From an uncultured Geobacteraceae bacterium (lineage in GTDB: Bacteria; Desulfobacterota; Desulfuromonadia; Geobacterales; Pseudopelobacteraceae): a DNA stretch of 36,905 bases. The notes under the pieces were generated by a model. The model ran no database searches. It had not been told where the DNA came from and worked only from the letters and a program-made list of their open reading frames with translations. A program made the translations under genes and the position numbers. This document shows positions 14,595-28,125 of the stretch, piece after piece; position 1 is the stretch's first letter; the number at the start of each line of letters is the position of its first letter. Location of the stretch: the NCBI GenBank assembly GCA_903901875.1, contig CAIUSO010000005.1, positions 1 through 36,905 on the forward strand, in the 5' to 3' direction.

Positions 14595-15548
14595 TTATTT
14601 GGGCATCGTTATTACAAATTCGTCATCACCGGTATTCATAGTCAGGGTTGCCTGGATATCGTAGGTATAGATACCACTCCGGTCACCTTCGCCAACCTGG
14701 GTGTAGGCACATTTTGGTGCGGCAATAGAGAACTTGTTATAGTTGGCCGTACCAAACGGTCCGATTGCAAGTGACCCCACGCTGCCAGACCGCCATTTTC
14801 CAAAGATATCATAGGTGGAAACTGACCCGGCCTCGGGATCACAACCAAGAACCGGTTTACGGTCAGCAATGCGTGCATAGGCCCAGCCTTCAGCACTATT
14901 CATCGATGGCACAAGTTCGACCTTGTTGCCGAGGTCAATGGAAAACTTACTGATTTTTAAGCTCTGACTGTCCAGGGTAAACGACGCCGAAAGCATCCAG
15001 GGCGGTGTGGACATTTCATAGTTAACTGTTGGTAGTGCCAGATCAGCAACGCCGGCAAATACTCCACTAAATTCCCAAGACAAAAAGGCCGGCTCACCAA
15101 TATTCGCTTCCAATTTGACGTTGCCGGCACAACCATAGAGCTTCTTGATTTCACCGTCCAAGGCACTCCATATGGTCAATGTCGGTATGGAGTTTGATGC
15201 AACCTGATAGGTAATAGATTCGGACCCGACTGTGGTGACGATGGTTTCACCCAGTCCGCAGGCGCGGGCAAAGGCTGAAAAAGCCGGTTTGACCGTGGCA
15301 GAATATGCTGTGCCTGGGCCTTTCAATTCGGTTTTAAAGGTGAATTTACCGGAACGCGCTCCGGGAAGCGGTGCTAATGGCGATAAGGTCACCATTTGCG
15401 GATTTCGCTCAAACATTTTAATATCAGGAGTGAACTTGACGTCGTATGCAATGATTCCCACGACATCAATTCCGGTGAGTGCTTCCATGGTTCCTGAAAC
15501 GCTCTCTATCTTTGCATAAATAGCGCGTTTACGCGTGTACATCGACAT
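14595..15548 (-). CDS. Major tail tube protein (siphovirus type)
   Basis: 317 aa from the ATG at 15546-15548, eight bases from AGGAGG; in-frame ATGs at 15554 and 15542 are possible alternatives. The protein is beta-rich and mostly acidic-neutral, with SGKFTFKTELKGPGTAYSAT followed by VKPAFSAFARACGLGET, and later LEANIGEPAFLSWEFSGVF. These are features shared with tail tube proteins of long-tailed Mu-like and lambda-like phages. It precedes the tail chaperone and tape measure genes. No sheath gene is found next to it, which argues for a non-contractile tail. Confidence 0.75.
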   Translation of the reverse strand: MSMYTRKRAIYAKIESVSGTMEALTGIDVVGIIAYDVKFTPDIKMFERNPQMVTLSPLAPLPGARSGKFTFKTELKGPGTAYSATVKPAFSAFARACGLGETIVTTVGSESITYQVASNSIPTLTIWSALDGEIKKLYGCAGNVKLEANIGEPAFLSWEFSGVFAGVADLALPTVNYEMSTPPWMLSASFTLDSQSLKISKFSIDLGNKVELVPSMNSAEGWAYARIADRKPVLGCDPEAGSVSTYDIFGKWRSGSVGSLAIGPFGTANYNKFSIAAPKCAYTQVGEGDRSGIYTYDIQATLTMNTGDDEFVITMPK

Positions 15549-15807
15549 TATCATTTCCTCCTGTCAGTTCTTCGCGACGCTTTGTGATTGCGGCCAATAC
15601 AGTGGTTCTGGTCTCACCGATTTCCAATGCAACCAGATCTTCGGCGGTAGCTTTCAGTATCGATGCGATCGCCTCGGCAGCTGTCGTCCGGTGTATCGGC
15701 TTACCGTTACCGGACTCTTCTTCACCCTTATTCGGGTAGTCCTCTATTACCACTCCGTCCACGATGGTTACTGCGCTACGGGTGGTTACTTCTGTCAAAT
15801 GGCTCAT
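15529..15807 (-). CDS. Small hypothetical protein of the head-tail region
   Basis: 92 aa with GGAGG before its ATG. The N-terminus is beta-like (SAVTIVDGVVIEDYPNKGEE). The C-terminus contains EAIASILKATAEDLVALEIG then ETRTTVLAAITKR, which resembles the C-terminal half of the gp35-like protein at 16677-17000 (DSAGLAALTEGETRKGVMDA then IAKR). The two may share one helical interaction module. The gene overlaps the tail tube gene slightly. Function unknown. Confidence 0.6.
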   Translation of the reverse strand: MSHLTEVTTRSAVTIVDGVVIEDYPNKGEEESGNGKPIHRTTAAEAIASILKATAEDLVALEIGETRTTVLAAITKRREELTGGNDNVDVHA

Positions 15808-17083: not shown

Positions 17084-18094
17084 TTATGCCAGCCAGGCTA
17101 CTTTGAGTGGTTCTGCGGTACCGGCCCATTCATTGGTGGCACCAGCGTCATTACGGTCATTGACCAGCAGTTTACGAGCCGCACCTTCCAGTGCTGGGGG
17201 GAATACGAGCAGATTTGGATTAATTCCCAAAGGTCTGCCGTGATCATTGGTCAGTGATCCCATAGCGGCACGAGCGGCGGCGTAGTTTTCGGCATTGAGA
17301 GGGGCGGTAGAACCGAATGCCATCTGCCACATGCCAAATCCGACATTGTCACGGCACTTGACGCCATAGACATATTCGTCCCGAAAAAAGACATTAGGAT
17401 CATTGGGATTGTCCAGAGCATTGAATTCGGGTGTTTCGCGTTGCTGGAATATCAGCGGCTTTACGGCCCGTGAGGTATCAAGCAAAAACCAGGCAGGTCC
17501 GCTTCCGGACTGCATGTTACTGACCGATTGATCGCCGACCGGATGATCGGTATCGAAGAAGTATTGACCATCATAGCAGGCACGGCTGAATCCGAGTTTA
17601 AGGGCGGCAAAGACGGTCTCGTCCGGGTGAGCGGCTGTAGAACGGCCCATTTCCTGGAAAAGCGGATTATAGATTCCCAGCTGGTCATCCTTGATGTCGT
17701 CGCCCTTGACACCAACGGTATTCTCATATTTCTTGTTCTTGATAGCGTAATCATGTAGCACCAATTGCTGAATGATACGGTCGCCAACCCATTCCCGCAT
17801 GGATGACAACTGGCCGAGCCATGGATAACCCTGCTCTTTACCGGTAGATGGCACCAGAGATGCTACCCGCATCCAGAGTGGCGTTACCCCGTTAAATGCG
17901 TCCTGAAAGAGCACTTTGTAGCTCTTGTAGAGTGCCTGCAATGTTCCAGAATTAACGATCAGACCGCCGATGCCGATAACGGGCAGGGTATGGGTAGCTG
18001 AATCTTGAGCCAGTGCGGCCCCATGAGGACAGAGGAGAACCATCACCACCAGGCTTAACAGCCATCCACCCATAATTACAAAAAAACTTTTCAT
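17084..18094 (-). CDS. T: Major capsid protein, Mu gpT-like, with signal-peptide-like N-terminus
   Basis: 336 aa from the ATG at 18092-18094, which has a textbook AAAGGAGAG Shine-Dalgarno; the longer TTG-started frame is not favoured. The core (SMREWVGDRIIQQLVLHDYA, then DDQLGIYNPLFQEMGRS and FSRACYDGQYFFDTDHPVG) matches Mu gpT, the HK97-fold shell subunit. Oddly, about 40 residues precede the usual N-terminus. They begin MKSFF, continue with a hydrophobic run of about 20 residues and end PHGAALA before QDS, a classic Sec signal peptide with a signal peptidase I site. A cytoplasmic shell protein should not carry this. It may be cleaved, anchor assembly at the membrane, or be removed by the phage protease. 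Confidence 0.93.
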   Translation of the reverse strand: MKSFFVIMGGWLLSLVVMVLLCPHGAALAQDSATHTLPVIGIGGLIVNSGTLQALYKSYKVLFQDAFNGVTPLWMRVASLVPSTGKEQGYPWLGQLSSMREWVGDRIIQQLVLHDYAIKNKKYENTVGVKGDDIKDDQLGIYNPLFQEMGRSTAAHPDETVFAALKLGFSRACYDGQYFFDTDHPVGDQSVSNMQSGSGPAWFLLDTSRAVKPLIFQQRETPEFNALDNPNDPNVFFRDEYVYGVKCRDNVGFGMWQMAFGSTAPLNAENYAAARAAMGSLTNDHGRPLGINPNLLVFPPALEGAARKLLVNDRNDAGATNEWAGTAEPLKVAWLA

Positions 18095-18141
18095 ACTCTC
18101 TCCTTTACTCAAATTTAGTCCCCAGAGGGACAACGTGGACC

Positions 18142-18549
18142 CTAGTTAAATCTGACCCAGACGCCATCCGCTTCAACATCGAAAACGGTGCCTGCTACAG
18201 ATCTGGTGTTAGTGCCGCTGGTTTTGGCCACGGTCTGATCGTCGACCATGTAGCAATCGTTGTCGATGTCGGCCGCTGTAATCGTATCGTCCGCCGAGTT
18301 GGCATATTTGAAGATACCTTTGCGGATGTCGACGCCCTCAGATCCCGCAACTCCGTTACTGTTGTCAACGTAAGCCTCAACCCGGCCCACGCCCCGCAGG
18401 TTTGTTGCAGTTGCACCCGGAGTTGCGTTACCCGAAGCATCACGAGCGGCCAGTGCTCCGGCAAAGAATTTTTTACCGGCTGCAGCAGGTAGAGTGATGG
18501 TATTTCCGGATCGCTCTACAGTAGCCCTGTCCCTAGTCAAAGCTCCCAT
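18142..18549 (-). CDS. Head decoration protein (DUF2190-like)
   Basis: 135 aa, TAATG-coupled to the protease/scaffold gene and placed just before the capsid gene. It is small and beta-rich, with Gly/Ala/Thr strands: TLPAAAGKKFFAGALAARDA, then NLRGVGRVEAYVDN, and DDQTVAKTSG near the end. This fits capsid-stabilising decoration proteins of the DUF2190/gpD kind. About 48 bases separate it from the capsid start. Direct homology to a named Mu gene is not claimed. Confidence 0.65.
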   Translation of the reverse strand: MGALTRDRATVERSGNTITLPAAAGKKFFAGALAARDASGNATPGATATNLRGVGRVEAYVDNSNGVAGSEGVDIRKGIFKYANSADDTITAADIDNDCYMVDDQTVAKTSGTNTRSVAGTVFDVEADGVWVRFN

Positions 18550-19166
18550 TATTGGTCTCCCCCTTCTACAATGTGTTTGTTAAAGGTCTCTGTGGATATC
18601 CCCATCATCTTGTTAATCTGCAACTGCAGGTCGTCAGAAATGGATCCGTTATCTTTGCGACCGCCGTTAACCTGTCCGATAGGCACAACAATTGGGGCCT
18701 TGGCGATAAACATTTCGAATCCCTTTGGGTCGCGGGTGGCATATTCCTTGGCCCACGGCTCCTGGGCCGGGGTAATCTTGCCGGATTTCATCGCCATTGC
18801 CACAACTTCATTGGAATCCTTTTCGGCCAGCTTGGTGCGTAATGAGGCAACCTCTCCGGACAGAGTTTCCAAAGCAGTGGCACCCTGTTTCATCGCCAGA
18901 ATCGTGGCGGTTGCTTCGGATACACTGGCACCGGTGGCCAGTCCCAAGGCCGTCAGGACGTCCTTGTTGGTCATAATGGCCGCCTGATCCTTCAGGGTGG
19001 TGACTGCCGAAACGGCGGCTCTTTCGTCAGCTTCCGTGCCGAGTCCCAGGGTGGACAGAACTTTATTCGCCATGGCACCTGATTGGAGCAGCTTGTTGAC
19101 GGCGATGCAGACTTCGCCCTCAGTTGCTGTCTCGGGGAGACCGAGCAGCTTAAACAGTTTTTTCAT
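18549..19166 (-). CDS. Z: Scaffold protein nested in the protease gene (Mu gpZ-like)
   Basis: 205 aa, in frame with the protease gene and sharing its stop. The internal ATG at 19164-19166 has GAGGAGG at ideal distance, stronger than the site of the full-length GTG start. The product (MKKLFKLLGLPETATEGE at its N-terminus) is helical, with a coiled-coil-like segment LSGEVASLRTKLAEKDSN and a C-terminal helix LQLQINKMMGISTETFNKHI. In Mu the I gene contains the scaffold gene Z as an internal restart; this is the same arrangement, with excess scaffold made independently of the protease. Confidence 0.8.
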   Translation of the reverse strand: MKKLFKLLGLPETATEGEVCIAVNKLLQSGAMANKVLSTLGLGTEADERAAVSAVTTLKDQAAIMTNKDVLTALGLATGASVSEATATILAMKQGATALETLSGEVASLRTKLAEKDSNEVVAMAMKSGKITPAQEPWAKEYATRDPKGFEMFIAKAPIVVPIGQVNGGRKDNGSISDDLQLQINKMMGISTETFNKHIVEGGDQ

Positions 19167-19643
19167 ATCTACCTCCTCGTTTTGTTGGTCCCGCTTGTTG
19201 ATCATCGGCACCATGCCGTCGATATTGGGTTGATTGGTAAGAGCAACGTTGAACAGGTCGACCACGCGTCGGTCAGATGCCCGCACCAGAAACACCGGAG
19301 AGACATAGCGGTACTCTCGGTTTGTAATGTATGCCTTGGCTTTGTCGGTCCACTCGACGCCAATAGCCCAGATGCCGTCCGCGCCTCGATCTTCCAGCCC
19401 TTTCATCGCCTTGATCCAGCCAGAGGCTGGGGCTTCGCTGCCGTTTAGAGTCTGATGCTCATAATCGATCACCATGTCGTTCTGACGATTGGCAAAGGCC
19501 GACAGGATCAGGGATGAACTTTCGGCGTCACAGAGAAAGTCGCCCTTTGGCGTGGTATGATGACCGGCCGGTATTACCTGGATATCGGTAGGTACGACAC
19601 CGTCAAGGTTTTTACAGGCAAGAGCGATCAGTCCGGTTTTCAC
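18549..19643 (-). CDS. I: Prohead protease with C-terminal scaffold (Mu gpI-like)
   Basis: 364 aa starting at GTG 19641-19643 behind AAGGAGG. The N-terminal 155 residues are the Mu I-type phage protease: KTGLIALACKNLDGVVPTD, then MVIDYEHQT, ASGWIKAM and NREYRYVSPVFL. The remaining part is the scaffold. The protease would mature the prohead by removing scaffold and perhaps the N-terminal extension of the capsid protein. The gene opens a new late transcription unit: an intrinsic terminator and a dyad/-10 element lie just upstream (19698-19751), exactly where Mu has promoter PI. Confidence 0.9.
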   Translation of the reverse strand: MKTGLIALACKNLDGVVPTDIQVIPAGHHTTPKGDFLCDAESSSLILSAFANRQNDMVIDYEHQTLNGSEAPASGWIKAMKGLEDRGADGIWAIGVEWTDKAKAYITNREYRYVSPVFLVRASDRRVVDLFNVALTNQPNIDGMVPMINKRDQQNEEVDMKKLFKLLGLPETATEGEVCIAVNKLLQSGAMANKVLSTLGLGTEADERAAVSAVTTLKDQAAIMTNKDVLTALGLATGASVSEATATILAMKQGATALETLSGEVASLRTKLAEKDSNEVVAMAMKSGKITPAQEPWAKEYATRDPKGFEMFIAKAPIVVPIGQVNGGRKDNGSISDDLQLQINKMMGISTETFNKHIVEGGDQ

Positions 19644-20510: not shown

Positions 20511-21326
20511 TTATGCCTCTCCCAGATCTTTTAACAGCTTCCAACTGAGTTCTTTCGGCATTGATGTGGCACTATCCTTGGCCACGGCCAAGGCATGGCC
20601 GACCTGATCCTTGCCGGGGTTATATGCCCAACCGGGATCGATGCCGTCAGGCACATATAGTACCTTGCCGGTTTTTGGGTTTGTCCAGGGACGCAGGTTC
20701 TCAGCAGGCATGTCTGATATTTTGAGACCATCCCTCTGAATTTCACGCATCGACATTGAGACGACCATGCAGCGGCAGTTCCAGCCGTTAGGTGGATAAT
20801 GGGTGTCCCACCAGGGGGAGTCGGCCGGAAGCACCGTACCGTTCCAGAACTTGTGAATCGGGCGGGTATGGGCGTCCATGACCGCTGAATAACGCCAGAA
20901 GGGCCGTGCCTTTAATACGTCTGGATCGGTCATTGCCTGGTAATGGCCAACCTGAAGAGAAGTCTGAATGTTGACGTTGAAGATGGTCTTAAGGCGATAC
21001 TGACTGCCGAGTTGAACAATACTCATTTCGCCAGTCGCAGTATCAATAGCTTCCTGTTTACCCCACCACCCTTTTTGTTGAAGCGTCGGGATCAGATCCT
21101 TTTTAAACTGTTCAAACGTGGTACCATCTGCCATGGCTTTTTTTACTGCATCAAAAATATCCTGGAGGATATCGGCTTTGGTGACCTTAGCTACGGTGAA
21201 TTTACTGGCATGTACTTCCTGCCACATCTCGGCCCAGTCCCAGGAGAACTGAAACCCTTTTGCCGTAAACCAGGCAATGGCTTTTTCCGGAGGCAGCGGG
21301 GTTATGTCAAGTGCCTGGTCAATCAT
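20511..21326 (-). CDS. F: Minor head protein, Mu gpF/gp30-like
   Basis: 271 aa, ATGA-coupled to the portal gene. It contains the Mu F/SPP1 gp7 domain: FNVNIQTSLQVGHYQAMTDP, RPFWRYSAVMDAHTRPIHKF and the signature YPPNGWNCRCMVVSMS with its conserved Cys pair. The protein binds the portal and remains in the head, where it helps DNA delivery. The order portal-F-G-protease is that of Mu. Confidence 0.92.
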   Translation of the reverse strand: MIDQALDITPLPPEKAIAWFTAKGFQFSWDWAEMWQEVHASKFTVAKVTKADILQDIFDAVKKAMADGTTFEQFKKDLIPTLQQKGWWGKQEAIDTATGEMSIVQLGSQYRLKTIFNVNIQTSLQVGHYQAMTDPDVLKARPFWRYSAVMDAHTRPIHKFWNGTVLPADSPWWDTHYPPNGWNCRCMVVSMSMREIQRDGLKISDMPAENLRPWTNPKTGKVLYVPDGIDPGWAYNPGKDQVGHALAVAKDSATSMPKELSWKLLKDLGEA

Positions 21327-22942
21327 GGTGTGCTGTCAATTCTCCCCGCAATTTGCGCCGAAAAGCAGGCCTGTGCTAAGAGTTCTGCCAGATCAGTTTC
21401 ATCCATAGCATCGTAAGCCACCGCCAGATGTGCCAGTGCTTCCTCATAAGATGATGCTCCCATGATGATATCAACTGTCTGCTTGAGCATGCCGATCATT
21501 GCGTCATCGGATTGAGCGAATGTGGTGATCTTCAATTTTTCGATGGATTGCTGCACGGGAGTAAACTGAACTGTCGAAGAAGTAGGTAGGGCGATTTTAT
21601 TAGCAACCGTCATATCAGCCCCACTGCCTATTGATCCAGCTTTATCGGACGGCAGGGTAGGTCCGCTCCCTGGCAATGGGAAACTTTGGGACGGCTGCAC
21701 AGTTGCTTCTCCAGCTTTGGCAATAGGGATACCGAAACGCTCGTGGATGTGTGCAACAGGAATGCCGCCAAAGCCAACGTCCTTGACCAGGGTGCCGTAA
21801 ACCTTGGCAATTTTTTCTTGATCTTCTTGCGGCTCGTAACGGAACTTGAATTTCGGTACGCCGACATCCGGACCTTTATTGTATGTGATCCAGGGTTTTA
21901 AAAGCTGGAATTTGATAGTCTTTGCCAGTGCTTTGGCGTCGTATTCAATCAGATCCTGGCGAACGTCCTTGGCCTCTTGTTCGCCGCCGAGTTTACCGGC
22001 CGTGCTTTCGGCACTACCCGTGTGGCCCAGGACGACCTTGCTCATCGCACGTTCGCAGTAATCGGCCAGTGACTGGAATGCCTGGGCATCGCCCCGATTC
22101 TTTGCTTCAAGCAGTTCAATGATGGTCGAGTCAGAGATCATTGCGGCAGCATCAACTCCCAAGGCATGCAAGGCACGCTTTAATGCGTCTTTTTCTTCCT
22201 TGCCTGACGCGCTGTTGTATTTGCCGACCCGCATCGGAACCGAATAGAGGCTGTTGAAGATAACCCAGTCTTTGACGTCATAATTTACGAACAGATACAT
22301 GTAGGTACAGGGGCGTAACAGGCCGCCACGCGAAGTAGCACCGCTTCGAGCCAGATGTCGATGAAAGATGAATTTATTTGGCAGCAGTTCCTCGCCGTAA
22401 ACCGGGTTCTCATCGGTGATCAGGTGCGGTACGTCCAGAACATGCAGGCCTTCAGGAGTGATGAAAGTGAAATCCTTCTGGTGCCACCATTTCACGCTCT
22501 TACACCAGACTTGTTTCCCGACAATCTCCCACATGATCTCGTTGACTGACCAGCCCTTTCCAACCGCGTCCATGATGTTCAGGATCCCATCTTCCCAATT
22601 CTCGATATATTCGATAAACTCTTTGGCCTCATCCGCATTTTTCTTGTCCTCAACCGAACTGGAAGCAGGTAGAATCTCCCAGTCGAGGCCGCATGGAGCC
22701 AGTTTCCGTGTACCCAATACACAACCCAGATGGCAATTTTTCTCTTCCATCTCTTCGAATAATTCAGCCTGACGCAGCATATTACCCTGGTCAGCTTCGC
22801 GCAATATCTTTGCCAGACGCTCGGGGGTGAGCCCGTTGGAGGGATATGAGGAAAATCGACTATGAACGGCCTGAATAGCGATTTCGTTCAGGACCGGTTT
22901 GTTGTGTTTGATTTCGTTTCCGTACTGGTCGAGCAAGTTCAT
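21323..22942 (-). CDS. Portal protein, Mu gp29-like (DUF935)
   Basis: 539 aa. The opening MNLLDQYGNEIKHN, then LTPERLAKILREADQGN, CHLGCVLGTRKLAPCGLDWE, and the later RALHALGVDAAAMISDST and HTGSAESTAGKLGGEQE are characteristic of the DUF935 portal family. The ring formed by this protein is the vertex for DNA packaging and tail attachment. The start at 22942 follows AAGG. A 77-base gap separates it from the terminase stop; no gene is seen in that gap. Confidence 0.93.
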   Translation of the reverse strand: MNLLDQYGNEIKHNKPVLNEIAIQAVHSRFSSYPSNGLTPERLAKILREADQGNMLRQAELFEEMEEKNCHLGCVLGTRKLAPCGLDWEILPASSSVEDKKNADEAKEFIEYIENWEDGILNIMDAVGKGWSVNEIMWEIVGKQVWCKSVKWWHQKDFTFITPEGLHVLDVPHLITDENPVYGEELLPNKFIFHRHLARSGATSRGGLLRPCTYMYLFVNYDVKDWVIFNSLYSVPMRVGKYNSASGKEEKDALKRALHALGVDAAAMISDSTIIELLEAKNRGDAQAFQSLADYCERAMSKVVLGHTGSAESTAGKLGGEQEAKDVRQDLIEYDAKALAKTIKFQLLKPWITYNKGPDVGVPKFKFRYEPQEDQEKIAKVYGTLVKDVGFGGIPVAHIHERFGIPIAKAGEATVQPSQSFPLPGSGPTLPSDKAGSIGSGADMTVANKIALPTSSTVQFTPVQQSIEKLKITTFAQSDDAMIGMLKQTVDIIMGASSYEEALAHLAVAYDAMDETDLAELLAQACFSAQIAGRIDSTP

Positions 22943-26723: not shown

Positions 26724-27124
26724 GGCTTTTCATCCTGCCAGTGCTTTCCGATCTCAACAGCATGTTCCGCTCCCCAGGTAACCGCCTCAGGGCAGGTAGC
26801 CGGTATTGCGGCCCGTTCAACATATTGAACTCGTTCCTCGGTAATAACCTGAATCTGGCCAGCCCGCTTTTCGGCTACCCGTAGCCGATCCTGCTGGGCA
26901 GCTGCATTGGCAAGTAGTTGATCAACGGCATTGTTTTGCGCGACAGTCTTTTCGCCAAGTATCTCCAACTCTACAGAGAGGATGGCGTTATTGGAATTGA
27001 CGGTGTCAAGGCGGGTACGCAGGGATCTAACGGTCACGTCTAATCCGATGTTGATGATCAGGATTAATGCGCTCATGATCAGTAGGGTACGGGTACCAAT
27101 TATGTTGATTATGCCATCTATCAT
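26720..27124 (-). CDS. Inner-membrane spanin, Rz-like
   Basis: 134 aa from the ATG at 27122-27124, TAATG-coupled to the endolysin stop. One N-terminal membrane segment (TLLIMSALILIINIGLDV) is followed by a periplasmic coiled coil (LDTVNSNNAILSVELEILGE, AAAQQDRLRVAEKRAG). This is the i-spanin arrangement, and the Rz1-like lipoprotein gene follows directly. Confidence 0.85.
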   Translation of the reverse strand: MIDGIINIIGTRTLLIMSALILIINIGLDVTVRSLRTRLDTVNSNNAILSVELEILGEKTVAQNNAVDQLLANAAAQQDRLRVAEKRAGQIQVITEERVQYVERAAIPATCPEAVTWGAEHAVEIGKHWQDEKP

Positions 27125-27690
27125 TACCAGTTCACCCTTGAAAGCCAACTTTTGAGGTACTTTTCCATCTTGGGGTTATGGTCAACAATGTCGATGTAAC
27201 GACCGAGTTGATAGCCGTTGAGCAGTTTGTAGATTTGCAATCGCCGGGACTTCTCTGCTGTATAAAAATTGAGCCAGCGAATGGTTTCGCTGGTCAACCT
27301 CCCATCTACGGGATAATCACGTCCCCGTCCGTTCAGATGATTGCAGACTTTTTGTACGATTCGTGCTGATGTCCCGACGCCGCAATTAACGGCGGTATCG
27401 AACACTTCCGTAGCCAACCCCTGCGATTTAAGCTCAGTCAGATGCAGTGGATTCCAAAAGTCCTGCTCGTACAACCAGGCAGCGCGTTTGAGGGTGAGGT
27501 GTTTTATATCCTCATGAGGATAGGAATGTTTGGAGATACCGTATTTTGTTTCCCCACCGGGATCGATTGGATCGTTGACGTAGCCACCTTCATGACCAAA
27601 GATGACAACCAGAGATTTACTGATGTCGGCGGCATGGGCCGGAACGCAGATGATAAGAGTAAGCAAGCTGATGAGAAGATATATGCGCAT
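27124..27690 (-). CDS. Secreted endolysin, GH108 N-acetylmuramidase
   Basis: 188 aa from the ATG at 27688-27690 behind AGGAG; upstream codons are leader sequence. Residues 1-20 (MRIYLLISLLTLIICVPAHA) are a Sec signal peptide. The catalytic region FGHEGGYVNDPIDPGGETKY includes the conserved Glu of the EGGY motif. Further family segments are LYEQDFWNPLH and EVFDTAVNCGVGTSARIVQK. The enzyme cleaves peptidoglycan after export. No separate holin is evident nearby, which fits a Sec-exported endolysin. Upstream lies a damaged tandem copy of this gene and a shared folded leader. Confidence 0.92.
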   Translation of the reverse strand: MRIYLLISLLTLIICVPAHAADISKSLVVIFGHEGGYVNDPIDPGGETKYGISKHSYPHEDIKHLTLKRAAWLYEQDFWNPLHLTELKSQGLATEVFDTAVNCGVGTSARIVQKVCNHLNGRGRDYPVDGRLTSETIRWLNFYTAEKSRRLQIYKLLNGYQLGRYIDIVDHNPKMEKYLKSWLSRVNW

Positions 27691-27705
27691 GGTAACTCCT
27701 AAAAT

Positions 27706-27761
27706 GGACCGGGGCATGGTAGAGGCCATACCTGGTGTCAACGGGTAAACGCTGCCGGTCC
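27706..27761 (-). promoter_or_regulatory. Folded leader in front of the endolysin ribosome-binding site
   Basis: An outer stem GGACCGG/CCGGTCC (27706-27712 with 27755-27761) encloses an inner hairpin (GGCATGG 27713-27719 with CCATACC 27726-27732, loop of 6). The 3' edge of the RNA structure lies 4 bases before the AGGAG of the endolysin. The second copy at 28056-28111 has the same fold, and its only inner-stem difference changes a G-U wobble to a G-C pair. It may time endolysin translation. Function is inference. Confidence 0.45.
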
Positions 27762-28040
27762 TTTGTTTGAGTGGGACTTCTCTGCTGTATGAAAATTGAG
27801 CCAGCGAATGGTTTCGCTGGTCAACCTCCCATCTACGGGATAGTCACGTCCCCGTCCGTTCAGATGATTGCAGACTTGATGCAGTGGATTCCAAAAGTCC
27901 TGCTCGTACAACCAGGCAGCGCGTTTGAGGTTGAGGTGCTTTATGTCCTCATGAGGATAGGAACGTTTGGAGATACCGTATTTTGTTTCCCCACCGGGAT
28001 CGATTGGATCGTTGACGCTGATGAGAAGATATCTACGCAT
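27738..28040 (-). pseudogene. Duplicated endolysin copy with two in-frame deletions
   Basis: 100 aa with the same Shine-Dalgarno and leader as the intact gene. Compared with it, one deletion removes 29 residues: most of the signal peptide, the start of the mature enzyme and the catalytic EGGY, so MRRYLLIS runs straight into VNDPIDPGG. A second removes about 30 residues between NPLH and VCNHLN. Both keep the frame. The C-terminus ends at the duplication junction with unrelated residues. The product cannot be an exported muramidase. The two leader/start copies are 350 bases apart. It is either a decaying duplicate or a small non-enzymatic product. Confidence 0.75.
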
Positions 28041-28125
28041 GGTAACTCCTAAAATGGACCGGGGCATGGTAGAGGCCATGCCTGGTGTCAACGGGTTAAC
28101 GCTGCCGGTCCTTTGTTTAAGCGGA
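27777..28125. repeat. Tandem duplication of endolysin 5' region (second unit)
   Basis: The stretch starting ACTTCTCTGCTGTAT near 27776 repeats the sequence from about 27249 up to the leader ending CCGGTCCTTTGTTT near 27766. Identity is high outside the two internal deletions, with scattered point differences. Gene-internal and leader sequences are duplicated together, consistent with an unequal tandem duplication followed by loss of two internal pieces. Confidence 0.7.
28056..28111 (-). promoter_or_regulatory. Second copy of the folded endolysin leader
   Basis: Same outer stem GGACCGG/CCGGTCC and a fully paired inner hairpin GGCATGG/CCATGCC. It precedes the ribosome-binding site of the damaged endolysin copy. 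Further upstream, about 28122-28137, a GGAGG/CCTCC palindrome is the only other structure seen before the late promoter candidate. Confidence 0.4.

What the first reader, a model, noticed from the sequence alone, without database searches (positions are those of the whole stretch)
17084..18094. Major capsid protein starts with a cleavable-type Sec signal peptide
From the best start (ATG 18092-18094, AAAGGAGAG site) the gpT-like shell protein begins with a Lys, a hydrophobic run of about 20 residues and PHGAALA before QDS, then about 15 residues before the usual Mu gpT N-terminus. I know of no signal peptide in Mu gpT. It could anchor prohead assembly at the membrane, serve as a cleaved delta-like domain, or be a captured host sequence.
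Basis: partly seen in the sequence, partly recalled or inferred. Interest (0 to 1): 0.8.

Follow-up and report, generated by a model that had tools for sequence, protein, structure and literature searches.

The report
Phage shell protein with export signal
This Mu-like prophage makes its main head-shell protein with a bacterial export signal on its front end, a feature that recurs in scattered relatives and suggests that some phages build their heads in contact with the cell membrane.

Summary
The 336-aa Mu gpT-like major capsid protein (17084-18094, minus strand) begins with a textbook Sec-type signal, then a 15-residue linker and the normal gpT body. It has the best start site and is the only gpT found in this genome.

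Extended gpTs recur: 54 of 186 fetched proteins (by length) and at least 30 of 344 distinct loci, in searches biased towards them. A signal grammar of mine passes 52 of 54 and 27 of 27, against 19 of 20 E. coli Sec substrates, 9 of 25 inner-membrane proteins, 1 of 76 cytosolic proteins and 1 of 132 short gpTs. Charge is positive before the hydrophobic run (76 of 81) and not positive after it (80 of 81); glycine precedes the body in 74 of 81. The trait changes at least 14 times on the gpT tree; relatives 85% identical differ by its presence.

So the signal is real and probably selected. Its job is inferred: most likely the shell protein is brought to the inner membrane, heads form there, and the signal is removed. 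No call shows export, cleavage or location. My searches of an open-access library listed no paper describing it. New variant of a known family.

The parts
17084..18094 (-). Major capsid protein gene (Mu gpT-like, 336 aa) with N-terminal extension
   Evidence: PF10124 at residues 52-335, E 2.1e-119; phrog_371 major head protein; best PDB fold match JBD30 procapsid
18098..18106 (-). Ribosome-binding site AAAGGAGAG
   Evidence: read directly
18008..18094 (-). Signal-peptide-like segment, residues 1-29, ending A-L-A
   Evidence: grammar test; helix 2-21 in the AlphaFold2 model
17963..18007 (-). Linker, residues 30-44, one acidic and no basic residue, ending Gly-Gly
   Evidence: read directly; Gly just before the body in 74 of 81 extended gpTs
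17960..17962 (-). CTG codon (Leu45) where plain gpTs have their start codon
18142..18549 (-). phrog_1731 virion structural protein (putative decoration protein), directly upstream of gpT
   Evidence: directly upstream in 26 of 26 extended loci with data and 210 of 284 others
18549..19643 (-). gpI-like head maturation protease with C-terminal part (possible scaffold)
   Evidence: PF10123, phrog_328
21323..22942 (-). Mu-type portal protein
   Evidence: PF06074, phrog_113

Best explanation
Shown by sequence: this gpT carries a Sec-type signal module (positive n-region, long hydrophobic core, usually an A-x-A site, then a linker almost free of positive charge). The module recurs in the family and, where the body lacks a start codon, must be on every gpT copy made. 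Inferred: the signal takes the nascent shell protein to the inner membrane and inserts; the folding, assembling body stays on the cytoplasmic side, so the head forms in contact with the membrane together with portal, scaffold and protease. The signal is then removed, by host signal peptidase at A-x-A or by the phage protease near the Gly-Gly junction, leaving an ordinary gpT shell free to expand and take in DNA.
For: Signal grammar passes 52 of 54 and 27 of 27 extended gpTs versus 1 of 132 short ones; A-x-A in 43 of 54 and 19 of 27. Charge before the hydrophobic core +1 or more in 76 of 81, linker at or below zero in 80 of 81, as in E. coli Sec substrates (19 and 18 of 20). Core length median 19, like inner-membrane proteins. 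No usual start codon at the body in 27 of 29 loci; a single gpT in the own genome and in 6 of 6 extended genomes or records. Recurrence on the tree and close pairs with and without.
Against: No call shows export, insertion, cleavage or place of assembly. The charge pattern predicts that what follows the signal is translocated, which for the capsid body would prevent assembly; that the body stays in the cytoplasm is my assumption. Extended loci have the same protease length as others, no convincing partner gene was found, and most relatives do without the signal. N-termini of HK97-type proheads usually face inwards (recalled), which fits a membrane tether poorly. Some extended gpTs lack A-x-A.
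Confidence: 0.45

Rival explanations
1. Delta-domain-like scaffold: the hydrophobic N-termini cluster inside the prohead, drive assembly, and are cut off by the gpI protease at the Gly-Gly junction. The membrane is not involved.
For: Gly before the body in 74 of 81; a gpI-like protease gene is present; the Mu portal is probably cut by protease I (passages).
Against: Does not explain positive n-regions, A-x-A enrichment or the linker nearly free of basic residues; the C-terminal part of the protease gene is not shortened.
Confidence: 0.2
2. Real export: part or all of gpT goes to the periplasm and has a second role there, for example at the cell surface or by blocking the translocon late in infection.
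For: Signal and linker look fit for export; both disulphide-site cysteines found in 22 of 81 extended, 52 of 315 plain loci and 25 of 132 short proteins.
Against: gpT is the only copy found and only the extended form can be made in 27 of 29 loci, so full export would leave no shell; the cysteine difference is small.
Confidence: 0.15
3. Tolerated passenger: a signal-like tail acquired by recombination, kept uncleaved or trimmed, with little effect on the phage.
For: Looser constraint in the extension than in the body; frequent gain or loss; a recombinant pair L075/L240.
Against: The signal design is held across 81 gpTs while the letters drift; it is found in far relatives.
Confidence: 0.12
4. 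Misread start: translation begins downstream and the upstream frame is not used.
For: One extended locus (L283) has ATG with a ribosome-like site at the body; the short label of P0151 beside extended P0079 may be a matter of start choice.
Against: CTG at the body here, no ATG/GTG/TTG there in 27 of 29 loci; a good ribosome site at the upstream ATG; the same design in many separate records.
Confidence: 0.03

Closest known systems
Mu gpT / JBD30 gp38 major capsid proteins (PF10124; PDB 9jod, 8rkc, 8rkx)
   Same: Same family by sequence and fold, same protease - structural protein - capsid gene order as many relatives
   Different: These solved proteins begin at the body; the window's has 44 extra residues with a signal design
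Class I Sec signal peptides (for example E. coli OmpA, MalE, LamB)
   Same: n-region, hydrophobic core, A-x-A and low-positive mature start
   Different: Longer hydrophobic core; the cargo is a phage shell protein; export and cleavage unproven
HK97 capsid protein delta domain (recalled)
   Same: An N-terminal extension of an HK97-fold shell protein that may be removed
   Different: About 100 residues in HK97 (recalled) against 38-62 here; hydrophobic, signal-like design
Filamentous phage pVIII coat protein (recalled)
   Same: A phage's main coat protein made with a cleavable signal sequence
   Different: pVIII is a membrane protein extruded through the envelope; gpT forms an icosahedral dsDNA head

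Membership tests
Mu gpT major capsid protein (PF10124) | Sequence match over the body | tested here: met
   residues 52-335, profile 1-289 of 289, E 2.1e-119
Mu gpT major capsid protein (PF10124) | Mu/JBD30 shell fold | tested here: met
   AlphaFold2 mean pLDDT 75; 8rkx_L TM 0.75, 9jod_A TM 0.64
Mu gpT major capsid protein (PF10124) | Gene lies in a Mu-type head cluster after protease I | tested here: met
Mu gpT major capsid protein (PF10124) | N-terminus starts at the body (usual, not obligatory) | tested here: not met
   44 extra residues; CTG at the usual start. A variant within the family, as in other members
Sec signal peptide (signal peptidase I type) | Positive n-region, hydrophobic core, small residues at -3/-1 | tested here: met
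   with E. coli controls
Sec signal peptide (signal peptidase I type) | Directs export or membrane insertion | not testable with these tools
   needs fusion or fractionation
Sec signal peptide (signal peptidase I type) | Cleaved by signal peptidase | not testable with these tools
   needs N-terminal sequencing
HK97-type delta domain | Long (about 100 residue, recalled) N-terminal assembly domain | tested here: not met
   extensions are 38-62 residues in 81 gpTs
HK97-type delta domain | Removed by the phage head protease | not testable with these tools
   protease gene present; cleavage not observable

The most novel reading that the evidence does not exclude
A scattered set of Mu-like phages builds its dsDNA heads on the inner membrane by giving every copy of the shell protein a Sec signal, with host translocon and signal peptidase acting as head-assembly and maturation factors. 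The signal is a portable module at the junction of the structural-protein and capsid genes, gained and lost by recombination.
Probability: 0.3. Interest if true: 0.92.

Novelty: new variant of a known kind. Interest (0 to 1): 0.74.

Why it matters
Shell proteins of tailed phages are taken to be soluble cytoplasmic proteins. A recurrent export signal on one, kept in design across many lineages, would link head assembly to the membrane and the Sec machinery. It bears on the old question whether proheads start at the membrane (as reported for T4, recalled), and can be settled by N-terminal sequencing and simple fusion tests.

Tried and rejected
Partner gene: ORFs within 7 kb of gpT in 13 extended against 199 plain loci; the strongest enrichments listed came mostly from one clade (L117, L224, L354, L355), plus one ORF with hits in 6 of 13 and 5 of 199; many look like unlikely frames in GC-rich DNA; nothing convincing. 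Lost scaffold: protease ORF length does not differ (23 extended, 282 plain, p 0.43). Periplasmic disulphide signature: weak at best, 22 of 81 extended against 52 of 315 plain loci and 25 of 132 short proteins. Hairpin with a second membrane span: only 11 of 73 measurable have a later 19-residue window above 1.6 on Kyte-Doolittle, so not general. Signal borrowed from the phage's own endolysin: that gene also has a signal-like start, but the two look different by eye. Literature: nine searches listed no paper that I could see reporting a signal on gpT; five papers were seen as passages only, the rest as listings. Phage collection: the rows listed (40 of 215 records, 30 of 215) align from the body only, but tblastn would hardly align a divergent signal, so this does not show absence in cultured phages. 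Host name: not sought further.

Full report
THE OBSERVATION. The minus-strand ORF 17084-18094 encodes 336 residues beginning with K2, an uncharged hydrophobic run, then P-H-G-A-A-L-A (23-29) and Q-D-S. The ATG at 18094 has a strong ribosome site (AAAGGAGAG, 18106-18098). PF10124 (Mu-like gpT) covers 52-335, and solved relatives JBD30 and Mu align from residues 46-48, so residues 1-44 are extra. The codon at residue 45 is CTG. The surroundings are those of a Mu-like prophage: portal, gpF, head-completion protein, gpI protease, phrog_1731 structural protein, gpT, tail genes, endolysin, Mor, GemA and transposase, with spanin-like genes by eye. The own genome gave one gpT match.

NOT ALONE. Of the 120 best proteins listed by the first search, 32 (the query among them) have 320 or more residues with a similar start; 88 are shorter. 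After a second search 186 proteins were in hand, 54 of them of 318 residues or more; both lists were capped at 120. Six viral scans and one genome scan plus the window's own locus gave 507 loci with 344 distinct gpT bodies: 27 extended by rule, 2 more by eye (L371, L436), 315 not. One of the 315 (L283) proved extended on inspection. These searches were aimed at extended queries, so the counts are not prevalences. In draws by taxonomy the trait is rarer. In the window's phylum 35 of 395 genomes match, and only the window's own match reaches the start of the signal; one more begins at residue 31, with a stop inside. None of the phylum loci that were fetched and could be tested was called extended, but some matches had no locus. 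In the order of the Rhodocyclus genome 17 of 300 genomes match, and 3 were called extended. Four extended gpTs are far relatives, 33-46% identical in the body to the queries used (L564, L565, L651, L657). Hosts named by record titles include Rhodocyclus tenuis, Rhodoferax sp. OV413, and Rhodospirillales, Rhodocyclaceae and Nitrospirota metagenome genomes.

IS IT A SIGNAL? A simple grammar (positive n-region, uncharged hydrophobic 9-mer, small residues at -3/-1) was run on E. coli genes as controls: 19 of 20 Sec substrates, 9 of 25 inner-membrane proteins and 1 of 76 cytosolic proteins pass. It passes 52 of 54 long gpTs, 27 of 27 extended loci, 1 of 132 short gpTs and 1370 of 8100 shuffled extensions. 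A-x-A occurs in 43 of 54 and 19 of 27, against 11 of 20 Sec substrates, 2 of 25 inner-membrane proteins and 25% of shuffles. Limits: I wrote the grammar; the E. coli classes were assigned by me from gene and product names; the 27 loci had been picked by a related, looser rule; and the gpT rows overlap and are related, so they are not independent trials. Charge before the hydrophobic core is +1 or more in 76 of 81, and the linker is at zero or below in 80 of 81. Sec substrates give 19 and 18 of 20; inner-membrane proteins 17 and 15 of 25. The hydrophobic core is longer (median 19) than in Sec substrates (14) and equals inner-membrane proteins (19). That suggests strong, membrane-type signals, and some may be uncleaved anchors. 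One protein (P0150) has a lipoprotein-like L-A-A-C instead.

A SECOND CONSERVED POINT. Just before the residue equivalent to the usual initiator Met stands Gly in 74 of 81, preceded by Gly in 46 and Ala in 15 (the position was found by pattern in the database proteins). In DNA that residue's codon is CTG 17, ATC 6, CTC 3, TTG 1, ATT 1, ATG 1 of 29, so in 27 of 29 no usual start is available there and only the extended form can be made. Six of six extended genomes or records gave one gpT match each, and 29 of 29 extended loci one match.

EVOLUTION. On a FastTree of 407 bodies (71 labelled extended, database proteins by length alone) the label needs 37 changes, at least 14 forced by well-supported branches, against 66 for shuffled labels. 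Some short labels on database proteins may be start-call errors (P0151 beside P0079). Close relatives differ: L249 and L246 (without) are 85% identical in the body, L325/L334 84%, L243/L111 83%. For L249/L246 the flanking DNA aligns and the extension is a clean insertion or deletion; the other three alignments are less clean. Of twelve pairs tried for dN/dS, seven informative ones gave 0.25, 0.39, 0.47, 0.52, 0.54, 0.58 and 1.01 in the extension against 0.08-0.29 in the body; the other five were saturated or nearly identical. Loose constraint on letters with a held design is usual for signal peptides (recalled). L075/L240 have an extension far more alike (pS 0.18) than the body (0.69), which points to recombination.

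STRUCTURE. AlphaFold2 on 32 extended sequences gives a helix at 2-21 (first two blocks pLDDT 82-83), a low-confidence linker at 25-42 and the shell fold (mean pLDDT 75; residues 95-121 also low). The best PDB matches are the JBD30 procapsid (TM 0.75) and the Mu capsid (0.64). In JBD30 the N-terminal arm (6-25) is a helix in the procapsid and unfolds on expansion, and the scaffold is cut by the protease (passages, PMC11445458). In Mu the portal C-terminus may be cut by protease I (passages, PMC11915804).

MECHANISM. Shown: a signal-type module, recurrently gained or lost, held in design, and in most loci necessarily on every gpT copy. Inferred: membrane targeting. The charge pattern predicts N-in with the linker outside. 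The body must stay in the cytoplasm to enclose DNA, so I propose that the signal inserts as a loop while the body folds and assembles, with later cleavage. That step has no direct support; real export and a purely internal scaffold role are live rivals. The junction glycines could be a protease site or just a hinge. The phrog_1731 gene lies directly upstream in 26 of 26 extended loci with data and 210 of 284 others (p 0.001, not corrected for kinship).

LITERATURE. Nine searches of an open-access library listed no paper that I could see reporting a signal on gpT. A Tistlia exoproteome paper lists gpT among proteins changing with salinity and predicts a Sec signal for a protein-I-like gene (passages, PMC4545795). 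The Tistlia gpTs met here are short: P0103 has 297 residues and L126 starts at the body.

VERDICT. New variant of a known kind, interest 0.74.

Noticed in passing
window 27124-27741 and 27738-28091 (minus): Two neighbouring ORFs start almost alike and both match endolysin family phrog_315; the second is shorter and lacks the signal-like stretch and the residues after it.
   Followed up: no
P0150 residues 1-21: One extended gpT has a lipoprotein-like L-A-A-C at the end of its hydrophobic run instead of A-x-A.
   Followed up: no
L283: An extended gpT with a GTG start that also keeps an ATG with a ribosome-like site at the body, so two forms might be made.
   Followed up: no
L075 and L240: Extension far more alike (pS 0.18) than the body (pS 0.69), a sign of recombination at the front of gpT.
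   Followed up: partly
window 14595-15554 (minus): Relatives of this tail protein were found in 88 of 224 plain loci but 0 of 16 extended ones; the window itself has both.
   Followed up: no
PMC4545795 (Tistlia consotensis): An exoproteome paper predicts a Sec signal for a Mu protein-I-like gene and reports gpT among its proteins (passages).
   Followed up: no
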